Shown here one piece after another: positions 20,530 to 52,781 of a DNA stretch of 64,000 nucleotides. The notes under the pieces were generated by a model. It saw only the letters and a list, made by a program, of their open reading frames with translations, searched no databases and was not told the origin of the DNA. Origin of the DNA: Incurvaria masculella (Eukaryota > Arthropoda > Insecta > Lepidoptera > Incurvariidae); the NCBI GenBank assembly GCA_946894095.1, contig OX335642.1, positions 23,881,021 to 23,945,020 of the forward strand, in the 5' to 3' direction. Within the stretch, counting starts at the first letter, position 1. The number at the start of each line of letters is the position of its first letter. Made by a program: the position numbers and the translations under genes.

Positions 20530-20985
20530 GGATGGCTCACTATGATATCGTAAGGGTCCGAATGTTTTGATTGATGAGAGAAGAGTGGCTCACAACGATA
20601 TCGTCAGGGTCCGAATGTGCTGATTGATGAGATAAGGGTGGCTCACAATGATATCGTAAGGGTCCGAATGTCCAGGCCAGTCGGTCTCCGCCGCCAGCAG
20701 CTCCCGCCATGAGAGAAGAGTGGCTCACAACGATATCGTCAGGGTCCGAATGTGCTGATTGATGAGATAAGGGTGGCTCACAATGATATCGTAAGGGTCC
20801 GAATGTCCAGGCCAGTCGGTCTCCGCCGCCAGCAGCTCCCGCCATGAGAGAAGAGTGGCTCACAACGATATCGTCAGGGTCCGAATGTGCTGATTGATGA
20901 GATAAGGGTGGCTCACAATGATATCGTAAGGGTCCGAATGTCCAGGCCAGTCGGTCTCCGCCGCCAGCAGCTCCCGCCACTTGTC
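20530..20985 (-). repeat. 135-bp tandem array over the Patj exon 9 donor
   Basis: Units with anchors at 20931, 20796 and 20661 are spaced by 135 bp. Each includes the exon-9 piece AAETDWPGHSDPYDII and two GTGAGC donor-like sites, one after GATATCATT and one after GATATCGTT. A partial run of the inner 45-bp sub-repeat extends to about 20470. The 146-residue ORF across this tract is a wrong-frame reading of the repeat. Confidence 0.88.
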
Positions 20986-21126
20986 CTGGATGGTGCGCGC
21001 GTCGGCCCGCTCGCTCGCGGCGTCCGCGCCCAGCACGATCTCCTGCTCGTCGGACGGGGACGCCGGCGACGCGGGGTGGCGCGCCTCCCAGTCCGGGTCC
21101 GTCTCGATGACCGACGACTCGTCGTA
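20917..21126 (-). CDS. Patj: Patj exon 9: linker before PDZ3
   Basis: This exon codes 70 residues: YDESSVIETDPDWEARHPAS at the start, ARTIQDKWRELLAAETDW in the second half, ending SDPYDII. Fly Patj has YYTDPELSDDAETEIIRKWQKIVGSDVEVI in this place; the KW helix is shared. Acceptor TTTAAG|TAC, donor ATT|GTGAGC, both phase 0. A second donor with identical GTGAGC lies about 45 bp further on in the repeated tract. Very GC-rich, rich in Asp/Glu/Ala. The end of the exon is the first unit of a 135-bp array. Confidence 0.85.
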
Positions 21127-21675
21127 CTTAAATCAGAGAAGGAACTCCTTAGTTCGATCTTGCACGATGGTGACTATATCGAGCAGCGAGTAAGGAACGA
21201 CGGGGGTGGCGATCGGAACGCAGCACGTGGCAGTGTTAATCACTGAATAGAAAGGAAGGAAAAGTGGCATGCGGCCGATATCGCGTCGTTATATGTCAAA
21301 ATTATATATAATTGTATGGGAATCTGGCGGCGTGTCGTATGCCACACAGTAGAAACATCGCGACGGCGCGGCGCGCAAATGTGCTCTAAAAATACGTTTG
21401 TCAAGTCAGTTGCCACCCACACAAACCCTCCAGTACGTCTGTGAATATGTTTGCATGTGGCATGTACGTTTCATTTGGATTGGTAGTTTTTGAAAATTAG
21501 AGACAGCCGGTCCCATAATACGCTCGCTCGATGCCATATCTCCTCCCTTCTTATCCATGGTGTAAATGCACCGACTCCTATGTAGTAATTGCTCTTGCTT
21601 AATCGAATGTTTGTTGCACTTAATAGCGCCCTGTGTAATTCTTACGTATTTTTACATATTCTTAGGTGTAATTGG

Positions 21676-22427
21676 AACTCGATATAGCGCACGCCGTTCA
21701 GGGATATACACACGCTGCAGCCGCTCGTAGCGTCCCGCAGCAGCGCCACCGCTTTGTGGTTGGACACGCCGTTCAGGGATATACTCACCACACTGAAACT
21801 GTAGTTGGGCAGCGAGGTGGCGGAGGGGCTGGGCGGGGGGAGCGGCGAGCGGCGGTCGTCCTGCGCCAGCGCACGCTGCAGCCGCTCGTAGCGTGCGCCG
21901 CGCAGATAGCGCAGCATGCGCAGGCGCACGGTCGCGCCGCGAGCGTCCTGCAGCAGCGTTACCGCCTTGTGGTTGGACATGCCGTTCAGGGATATACTCA
22001 CCACACTGAAACTGTAGTTGGGCAGCGAGGTGGCGGAGGGGCTGGGCGGGGGGAGCGGCGAGCGGCGGTCGTCCTGCGCCAGCGCACGCTGCAGCCGCTC
22101 GTAGCGTGCGCCGCGCAGATAGCGCAGCATGCGCAGGCGCACGGTCGCGCCGCGAGCGTCCTGCAGCAGCGTTACCGCCTTGTGGTTGGACATGCCGTTC
22201 AGGGATATACTCACCACACTGAAACTGTAGTTGGGCAGCGAGGTGGCGGAGGGGCTGGGCGGGGGGAGCGGCGAGCGGCGGTCGTCCTGCGCCAGCGCAC
22301 GCTGCAGCCGCTCGTAGCGTGCGCCGCGCAGATAGCGCAGCATGCGCAGGCGCACGGTCGCGCCGCGAGCGTCCTGCAGCAGCGTTACCGCCTTGTGGTT
22401 GGACACGCCGTTCAGGGATATACTCAC
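21676..22427 (-). repeat. In-frame 213-bp tandem array from Patj exon 8
   Basis: The interval after exon 8 repeats exon 8 minus its first codons with an exact 213-bp (71-codon) period. There are three further full units (ending at donors 22215, 22002 and 21789), then a truncated unit and a fused fragment to about 21676. Full units differ by only a few bases (for example VALLRDA/VTLLQDA). All are open in the sense frame. The antisense strand is open too, a by-product of GC-rich repetition. Confidence 0.93.
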
Positions 22428-51589: not shown

Positions 51590-52640
51590 CGTCCTAACCT
51601 GGCCTGCGAGGCGGGATACTCTTGACGAAGACGCTGGACGAGATGCCGCTGACGATGTCGAACGTCAGGCCCGAGCCGTCGTTCAGTAGTTCGACCGCCT
51701 CTACCAGAGCTCACTCGTCGCACAGCTGAGGGCTAGGAAACTAAGTACGTGGTAAACGTTACTAGCCCGGTCTGCGACGCCGCCCGGCAAGATACTCTTG
51801 ACGACGACGCCGGACGAGCGGCCGCCGACGATATCGAACGCTAGGTCCGAGCCGTCGTTCAGTAGTTCGACCGCCTCTACCAGAGCTCACTCGTCGCACA
51901 GCTGAGGGCTAAGAAACTAAGTACGTGGTAAACGTTGCTAACCCGGTCTGCGATGCCGCCCGGCAGGATACTCTTGACGACGACGCCGGACGAGCGGCCG
52001 CCGACGATATCGAACGCTAGGTCCGAGCCGTCGTTCAGTAGTTCGACCGCCTCTACCAGAGCTCACTCGTCGCACAGCTGAGGGCTAGGAAACTAAGTAC
52101 GTGGTAAACGATGCTAACCCGGTCTGCGATGCCGCCCGGCAGGATACTCTTGACGACGACGCCGGACGAGCGGCCGCCGACGATGCCGAACGCCAGGCCC
52201 GAGCCGTCGTACAATAACTCGACCGCCTCCACCAGAGCTCACTCGTCGCACAGCTGAGGGCTAGGAAACTAAGTACGTGGTAAACGATGCTAACCCGGTC
52301 TGCGACGCCGCCCGGCAGGATACTCTTGACGACGACGCCGGACGAGCGGCCGCCGACGATGCCGAACGCCAGGCCCGAGCCGTCGTACAATAACTCGACC
52401 GCCTCCACCAGAGCTCACTCGTCGCACAGCTGAGGGCTAGGAAACTAAGTACGTGGTAAACGATGCTAACCCGGTCTGCGATGCCGCCCGGCAGGATACT
52501 CTTGACGACGACGCCGGACGAGCGGCCGCCGACGATGCCGAACGCTAGGCCCGAGCCGTCGTACAATAACTCGACCGCCTCCACCAGAGCTCTTTCGTCG
52601 CAAAGCGGAGGGCTAGGAAACTAAGTACGTGGTAAACGTT
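51590..52640 (-). repeat. Six extra tandem copies of Patj exon 2 (176-bp unit)
   Basis: Downstream of exon 2 the sequence repeats with a 176-bp period: copies near 52470-52584, 52294-52408, 52118-52232, 51942-52056, 51766-51880 and a diverged one at 51597-51712. Each holds the PDZ1 half-exon from VEAVELL to VADR and a GTTAG-type or close donor, joined by about 60 bp of intron. The copies lack the exon-2 acceptor; the only CAG upstream of the coding part in a unit opens an in-frame TGA, so they cannot be spliced in cleanly. Copies far from the exon have more changes (for example ATATCG for ATGCCG). Confidence 0.9.
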
Positions 52641-52646
52641 ACTAAC

Positions 52647-52781
52647 CCGGTCTGCGACGCCGCCCGGCAGGATACTCTTGACGACGACGCCGGACGAGCG
52701 GCCGCCGACGATACCGAACGCCAGGCCCGAGCCGTCGTTCAGTAGCTCGACTGCCTCCACCTGAGCGCATTCGCCGAACAC
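52647..52781 (-). CDS. Patj: Patj exon 2: N-terminal half of PDZ1
   Basis: This exon codes 45 residues, VFGECAQ followed by the first half of a PDZ domain ([17 protein letters not shown], then a [20 protein letters not shown] stretch). It aligns from memory with the first PDZ of Drosophila Patj ([22 protein letters not shown]). The carboxylate-binding loop reads GLAF rather than the usual GLGF. Acceptor TTCTCAG|GTG and donor CGG|GTTAGT, both phase 0, define the ends. Patj is a cytoplasmic scaffold of the Crumbs-Stardust complex at apical junctions. The exon is the most upstream unit of a seven-copy 176-bp tandem array that runs into the downstream intron; only this copy keeps the authentic acceptor. 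Confidence 0.9.

What the first reader, a model, noticed from the sequence alone, without database searches (positions are those of the whole stretch)
20530..52781. Five Patj exons carry separate tandem arrays that all span the 5' splice site
Exons 2, 3, 7, 8 and 9 are each followed by tandem copies whose unit contains the exon's 3' part and its donor. Unit sizes (176, about 90, about 80, 213, 135 bp) and ages differ, so these are independent events in one gene, always growing downstream of the exon and never copying the authentic acceptor. Ordinary intron satellites would not be expected to hit a donor five times. Possible causes (inference): a donor-linked break or replication block such as an R-loop at GC-rich exon ends, or selection for decoy donors. 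An assembly artefact is unlikely for the decayed exon-7 array but must be excluded for the fresh ones.
Basis: partly seen in the sequence, partly recalled or inferred. Interest (0 to 1): 0.88.

Follow-up and report, generated by a model that had tools for sequence, protein, structure and literature searches.

The report
Exon-derived tandem arrays in moth introns
In this lepidopteran genome the ends of protein-coding exons have been copied over and over into the neighbouring intron together with a splice site; this happens in several genes, not just the one first spotted, and resembles an instability described so far mainly in chickens.

Summary
Exons 2, 3, 7, 8 and 9 of a minus-strand Patj/InaD-like multi-PDZ gene are each followed by tandem copies holding the exon's 3' part and its donor (176, 90/94, about 82, 213, 135 bp). 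The nine other internal exons showed none, and no copies were found upstream of 15 exons. One detail is wrong: exon-2 units copy the whole exon plus the last 5 nt of its acceptor.

The reading "special to Patj donors" fails. The same genome has such arrays at a neighbouring gene, in one of five arbitrarily placed 10-kb regions, at 5 or more of 55 other PDZ-exon clusters and, by match spacing, at a PH exon; two are acceptor-side. Annotated Patj-family proteins of other Lepidoptera carry array-like repeats, often at other exons, which argues against an assembly artefact. No G4 motif or consistent GC skew marks the five donors.

Best explanation: "exon stuttering" (Hron et al. 2026, chicken dot chromosomes): local tandem duplication at usually GC-rich exon ends, surviving where splicing ignores the copies. 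My searches found no earlier report in an insect. The molecular trigger is unproven.

The parts
52647..52781 (-). exon 2 (first half of the gene model's first PDZ domain), authentic copy
   Evidence: gene model; PDB match to human InaD-like protein (2dlu); tblastn with Galleria protein P0121
51610..52786 (-). exon-2 array, 176 bp x6.7; unit = last 5 nt of the acceptor + whole exon + donor + 36 nt of intron; several copies hold in-frame stops
   Evidence: TRF; in-register comparison; tblastn; local alignment
47536..47688 (-). exon 3 (second half of that PDZ domain)
47361..47554 (-). exon-3 two-copy repeat, 90/94 bp; last 19 nt of exon + donor CAG|GTCACT + intron
   Evidence: offset scan, junction comparison
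28158..28249 (-). exon 7
27465..28212 (-). decayed exon-7 array, about 82-bp period, 71-87% identity in the longer matches
   Evidence: blastn and lenient TRF; screen
22428..22643 (-). exon 8
21729..22634 (-). exon-8 array, 213 bp x4.3, 98% matches; unit = exon from nt 10 to its end + GTGAGT; in frame, without stops
   Evidence: TRF
20917..21126 (-). exon 9, ending at ATT|GTGAGC
   Evidence: lepidopteran relatives read ..YDIIVGTI or similar across the junction
20460..20979 (-). exon-9 array: 53-bp donor-spanning repeat x3.9 nested in a 135-bp repeat x3.0
   Evidence: TRF

Best explanation
The arrays are exon stuttering: short local tandem duplications that begin inside a coding exon, usually GC-rich, and end 2-104 nt past its donor (or, less often, run across its acceptor), then grow, homogenise and decay as intronic satellites. 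Shown: direct tandem copies in the adjacent intron that hold an exon edge with its splice site, differ in unit and age, and occur at exons of several genes in this genome; repeats of matching kind in proteins of relatives. Inferred: (1) exon edges are hot because recombination, repair or replication there is error-prone, in a lineage with strong GC-biased gene conversion; (2) growth is by unequal exchange or slippage; (3) selection decides which arrays persist: a donor-side array leaves the full exon next to its first donor, so the transcript can stay normal, while a unit that also carried a working acceptor with its polypyrimidine tract would be spliced in. All ten donor-side units start at or after the last 5 nt of the acceptor.
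For: Anatomy. Generality in this genome: Homer-like neighbour (name recalled) 174 bp x3.4; C10 exon 155 bp x15.1, met in one of 5 arbitrarily placed 10-kb regions; PDZ exons on C13 (178 bp), C9 (136 bp), C11 (262 bp x9.9) and two on C5 (120 and 139 bp); PH exon on C14, 11 matches, ten of ten steps 167 bp (DNA not read). In 301 kb scanned, 7 of 7 arrays with GC >= 0.55 touch an exon edge (131 of the 301 kb are the window and PDZ loci, so exons are over-represented). Cross-species: repeated segments in annotated proteins of Chrysodeixis (e12-type exon), Ostrinia furnacalis and Mythimna (e3), O. nubilalis (e11), Papilio machaon (e8), Colias (e10-type exon of the second paralogue), frame-shifted copies in Chilo (e14). 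gBGC argued to be strongest in Lepidoptera (PMC10978632, passages).
Against: Exon 7 is only 48% GC although its array is the most decayed; several GC-rich exons of the gene (e5, e10, e11, e14: 0.67-0.77) have none. Differences between authentic exon and copies are mostly synonymous (e2: 4-5 synonymous, 1-3 not; e8: 4 and 2-3; crude ratio 0.10-0.31): I read this as changes of the authentic exon under constraint, but coding constraint on the copies is not excluded. Kinase-domain matches show no regular array (137 matches, 128 of 629 candidates scored; two possible partial pairs, not readable). Donor bias is 10 to 2 (p = 0.039), but the window's five prompted the test; outside the window it is 5 to 2. 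No transcripts, reads, population data or nucleotide sequence of other species were available.
Confidence: 0.65

Rival explanations
1. Donor-linked fragility: something at the 5' splice site (R-loop, G4, replication block) breaks DNA and makes the arrays, so donors are true hotspots.
For: 5 of 14 donors against 0 of 15 acceptors in this gene; 10 to 2 over all classified arrays.
Against: Two acceptor-side arrays exist; outside the window the count is only 5 to 2. GC skew is mixed, none of the five hit donors has a G4 motif, folding energies of hit and unhit donors overlap. A survival filter through splicing gives the same one-sidedness.
Confidence: 0.12
2. Functional coding repeats or decoy donors: arrays are kept for alternative splicing or longer proteins; at exon 8 the 71-codon unit is in frame and each full copy has the same GTGAGT donor.
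For: Exon-8 array open through its copies, unit a multiple of 3; differences between authentic exon and copies at e2 and e8 are mostly synonymous (crude ratio 0.10-0.31).
Against: Exon-2 unit is 176 bp with stops in several copies; exon-9 and Homer-like copies read into stops; of 12 clear unit lengths (176, 213, 135, 53, 174, 178, 136, 120, 139, 262, 155, 167) 4 are multiples of three, the chance share; exon-8 copies have A to T and R to Q changes where the authentic exon and most relatives seen keep A and R.
Confidence: 0.1
3. Assembly or polishing artefact: tandem copies created by misassembly of GC-rich exons.
For: Some copies are near identical (e9 100%, C11 99%), and read data cannot be seen.
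Against: Exon-2 copies carry shared and private substitutions; exon 7 is decayed; the assembly has 31 contigs for 552 Mb; comparable repeats occur in annotated proteins of other lepidopteran species.
Confidence: 0.06
4. RNA-templated origin: splicing intermediates or circular RNAs that start at an acceptor are copied back, giving units bounded by splice sites.
For: Five of ten donor-side units start within -5 to +9 nt of the acceptor (e2, e8, C11, C13; C10 by eye), with about 14-52 nt between donor and next exon start in three of them (C10, e2, C11).
Against: Units keep donor and intron bases, other units start 22-147 nt into the exon, and tandem DNA duplication at short matches such as CAG would look the same.
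Confidence: 0.05

Closest known systems
Sequence/exon stuttering, chicken dot chromosomes (Hron et al. 2026, PMC12954441; abstract and sections 7, 9 and 16 read, found passages of the rest; section 8 not read)
   Same: Direct tandem copies of an exon edge with its splice site in the adjacent intron, coding exon intact, tens to hundreds of bp, imperfect, GC-rich genes, varied copy number.
   Different: Here in a lepidopteran genome; the array-bearing contigs whose length I saw are 20-33 Mb. Units often hold most of the exon (there the exon part has a median of 36 bp); donor side prevails in the few classified. Population length variation not tested.
Stuttering in extremely GC-rich gerbil genes (mentioned as data not shown in PMC12954441)
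   Same: GC-rich coding sequences with the same intron pattern, as stated there.
   Different: Seen only through that passage; not compared here.
Intron gain by tandem genomic duplication (PMC4974935, PMC3443670; and PMC2891723 on novel Drosophila intron positions by tandem duplication; search listings only)
   Same: Tandem duplication of exon sequence near splice junctions, reported also in an insect genus.
   Different: Here existing introns grow by many exon-edge copies; no new intron position was shown.
Ordinary intron minisatellites (e.g. 58995-59856, 26168-26508 in this window)
   Same: Tandem arrays of similar unit size and copy number.
   Different: Those are AT-rich or neutral in GC and hold no exon sequence that I recognised; not searched in depth.

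Membership tests
Exon stuttering (Hron et al. [quoted passage not shown]
   e2, e3, e7, e8, e9 and five further donor-side plus two acceptor-side loci
Exon stuttering (Hron et al. 2026) | source reaches the exon border, so the splice site is copied | tested here: met
   nine donor-side alignments run into the donor, the tenth by eye; acceptors at L043 and L057 by reading the sequence
Exon stuttering (Hron et al. 2026) | coding exon itself stays intact | tested here: met
   510-aa continuous frame over e2-e11 of the window gene
Exon stuttering (Hron et al. 2026) | copies strictly local | tested here: inconclusive
   genome search of 20500-21500 gave no match elsewhere to the e9 array, but only 40 of 4061 candidates were scored and 39 matches are a different dispersed repeat at query 733-1001; other arrays not searched genome-wide
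Exon stuttering (Hron et al. 2026) | GC-rich source exons | tested here: inconclusive
   array exons 0.69, 0.78, 0.48, 0.72, 0.70; unhit exons e4-e6, e10-e15 0.50-0.77
Exon stuttering (Hron et al. 2026) | concentrated on dot chromosomes | tested here: not met
   arrays on C2, C5, C9, C10, C11, C13, C14; lengths seen for C2, C5, C10, C11, C13 are 20.2-32.9 Mb. This is where it was found in chicken, not part of that paper's criterion for a stuttering event
Exon stuttering (Hron et al. 2026) | intron length varies between individuals | not testable with these tools
   one assembly only
Intron gain by tandem duplication | new intron at a position absent in relatives | not tested
   no lepidopteran nucleotide sequence of other species to compare
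Mobile or dispersed satellite | copies at unrelated places | tested here: inconclusive
   none seen for the e9 array, with the scoring limit; other arrays not searched

The most novel reading that the evidence does not exclude
Exon stuttering is a general mutational process that arises independently wherever GC-biased gene conversion makes exons GC-rich (birds, gerbils, Lepidoptera). In Lepidoptera it acts genome-wide and turns exon ends into intronic satellites, with splicing acting as a filter that leaves mostly donor-side arrays, so intron growth and decoy splice sites are by-products of gBGC.
Probability: 0.4. Interest if true: 0.85.

Novelty: new variant of a known kind. Interest (0 to 1): 0.7.

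Why it matters
If exon stuttering also occurs in Lepidoptera, it is not a peculiarity of avian dot chromosomes but perhaps a consequence of gBGC and GC-rich exons, testable across the many public moth and butterfly genomes. It would also explain odd gene models (an annotated Colias protein holds a 38-residue unit about 15 times), supply many natural tests of how the spliceosome chooses among identical donors, and give a route for intron growth from coding sequence.

Tried and rejected
Rejected: Patj-specific cause; R-loop, G4 or hairpin signature at the five donors; simple artefact. Weakened, not excluded: coding or decoy function (against; partly for). Led nowhere: a composite Homer-like coiled-coil peptide matched nothing in the PDB, so that gene name is recalled; CASK-like for L040 is recalled too. 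An automatic in-register boundary finder was too strict and was replaced by local alignment; the script failed at L058, whose boundary was read by eye. Kinase-domain exons as a control: 137 matches, only 128 of 629 candidates scored, no regular spacing; two overlapping pairs (C5:21867451/21867838, C7:20283345/20283705) noticed by eye and not read. A PDZ pair 288 bp apart (C17:11131929/11132217) was not examined. The two C5 acceptor-side arrays lie 25 kb apart on one strand and may be one gene, so the 10-to-2 count is not fully independent. In one search the e9 135-bp row was dropped as overlapping the 53-bp row (GC 0.46), hence 7 and not 8 GC-rich arrays. The background rate uses the 11 remaining arrays, not each checked for coding content, and 22 PDZ exons where a recount gives 21 (30 loci, less 8 that repeat a locus and 1 in the window gene); the expected numbers fall by about 5% with 21. 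In one search, 5 of 21 Patj-like and 3 of 171 other proteins had exact 8-residue repeats; Chilo P0002 was added by eye; the other-group hits P0015 (beetle) and P0146 (Papilio) were not followed. Literature: in the listings I saw no insect report of multi-copy exon-edge arrays in introns; several listings were capped (12 of 42, 10 of 28, 12 of 43), only titles and abstract starts were seen, and most subscription papers are not held.

Full report
What is there. The window lies at C2:23881021-23945020 of a 552-Mb genome in 31 contigs. A minus-strand gene runs through it. Exons e2-e11 with GT-AG junctions join into one 510-aa frame; the best solved-structure match is human InaD-like protein, entry 2dlu, and the domains are PDZ. 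The closest proteins are lepidopteran Patj-like proteins, the best seven at 72-74% identity, while a second lepidopteran Patj stands at about 42-44%. In this genome that second paralogue is probably the single 655-aa open frame on C19 (not compared in detail). tblastn with Galleria and Parnassius proteins places further exons e12-e16, the 531-aa open frame at 4.1-5.7 kb, and later exons beyond the window.

The arrays. Exons 2, 3, 7, 8 and 9 are followed by tandem copies with the donor. The homologous stretch starts, relative to the acceptor, at -5 (e2), +134 (e3), +37 (e7), +9 (e8) and +147 (e9), and the next copy starts 36, 71, 28, 6 and 72 nt past the donor. In exon 8 the three full copies share changes that the authentic exon lacks, so the copies have been homogenised or re-amplified among themselves. 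Exon 7 is decayed (71-87% identity in the longer matches). The screen found nothing at the other internal exons, e4-e6 and e10-e15, and nothing upstream of any of 15 exons.

Not one gene. A flanking gene (Homer-like by recall) has a 174-bp donor-spanning array. One of five 10-kb regions whose positions I picked without looking has a 155-bp array of about 15 copies downstream of a membrane-helix-like exon. The 91 PDZ matches fall into 59 clusters, 4 of them in this gene; of the 55 others at least 5 carry exon-derived arrays: C13, C11 and C5:738658 by regular match spacing, C9:10439202 and C5:713980 by TRF. By recount, 21 of the 55 were scanned with 1500-base flanks (3 with arrays: C13, C9, C5:713980); the rest only by match spacing. 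A PH exon on C14 shows 11 matches, ten of ten steps 167 bp (31 matches, 66 of 66 candidates scored). Kinases show no regular array. The two C5 arrays are acceptor-side: the authentic exon is the last copy and the unit holds the 3' splice site. Classified arrays are thus 10 donor-side (5 here) and 2 acceptor-side (p = 0.039); outside the window 5 and 2, too few to show a bias on their own.

Other Lepidoptera. Annotated proteins carry repeats whose position fits array read-through: Ostrinia furnacalis and Mythimna at exon 3, O. nubilalis at exon 11, Chrysodeixis at the e12-type exon, Papilio machaon at exon 8, Chilo at exon 14 (frame-shifted), and about 15 copies of a 38-residue unit in Colias at an e10-type exon of the second paralogue. 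Of 21 Patj-like proteins 5 have exact repeats, of 171 others 3. For P. machaon the side cannot be read. These are proteins, not DNA, and rest on others' gene models.

Chance and artefact. In 301 kb of this genome, 7 of 7 arrays with GC >= 0.55 touch an exon edge, among 19 arrays in all. Taking the 11 arrays without recognised exon edge as background, this gene should have 0.11-0.28 edge arrays and has 3 by the same detector; the PDZ exons should have 0.16-0.42 and have 3 (computed with 22 exons; 21 by recount). Both are rough and post hoc, since the region was chosen for its arrays. Variation among copies, decay and recurrence in other assemblies argue against an artefact, but reads were not available.

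Constraint. Authentic exon and copies differ mostly at synonymous sites (e2: 4-5 synonymous and 1-3 other changes per copy over five copies; e8: 4 and 2-3 over three copies; crude ratio 0.10-0.31; e9: no differences). If the authentic exon is constrained and the copies are homogenised, part of this is expected, but it also fits copies that were coding for a time. Stops in e2, e9 and Homer-like copies speak against a general coding role.

How it may work. No donor-specific signal was found: mixed GC skew, no G4 motif at the five hit donors, overlapping folding energies. The simplest account is local tandem duplication at exon edges in a lineage with strong GC-biased gene conversion (PMC10978632, passages), growth by unequal exchange or slippage, and a splicing filter on survival. 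Ten of ten donor-side units start no further upstream than the last 5 nt of the acceptor (nine, one by eye), as expected if a unit with a working acceptor would be spliced in. Five of the ten start within -5 to +9 of the acceptor, which this account does not require; it is left as an open clue.

Compared with what is known. The same anatomy was named sequence or exon stuttering in chicken dot chromosomes (PMC12954441): 236 introns in 115 genes, copying donor or acceptor edges, with a remark on GC-rich gerbil genes and no occurrence of the word insect. It is the only paper in the library with that term. Here the chromosomal setting differs and the units often hold most of the exon, hence 'new variant of a known kind'.

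Noticed in passing
window 21232-21500: Dispersed repeat of about 260 bp in intron 8; 39 other genome matches at 82-85% identity (a lower bound: 40 of 4061 candidates scored).
   Followed up: no
window 40023-42937 (+) and 7051-8308 (+): Open frames that look like non-LTR reverse transcriptase pieces (by recall; frames).
   Followed up: no
window 24041-24222, 33088-33234, 48541-48701, 62923-63021: A similar short element whose translation reads ..PKG.NG...SLRCPSVRPS.. 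recurs at four places, two of them with a GACG/GTCC microsatellite.
   Followed up: no
window 58995-59856 and 26168-26508: Arrays of 143 bp x6.0 (GC 0.38) and 100 bp x3.4 (GC 0.45) without recognised exon sequence; the ordinary kind.
   Followed up: partly
G000:C19:11951216-11953024: Probable second Patj paralogue as one 655-aa open frame without introns, so it can have no donor arrays; in Colias a protein of that group has a 38-aa unit about 15 times (P0131).
   Followed up: partly
G000:C14:14519287-14521121: PH-domain exon with 11 matches at steps of 167 bp; DNA not read, side unknown.
   Followed up: no
G000:C5:713980 and C5:738658-739877: Two acceptor-side arrays 25 kb apart on one strand, perhaps one PDZ gene, hinting that the side may be set per gene or region.
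   Followed up: partly
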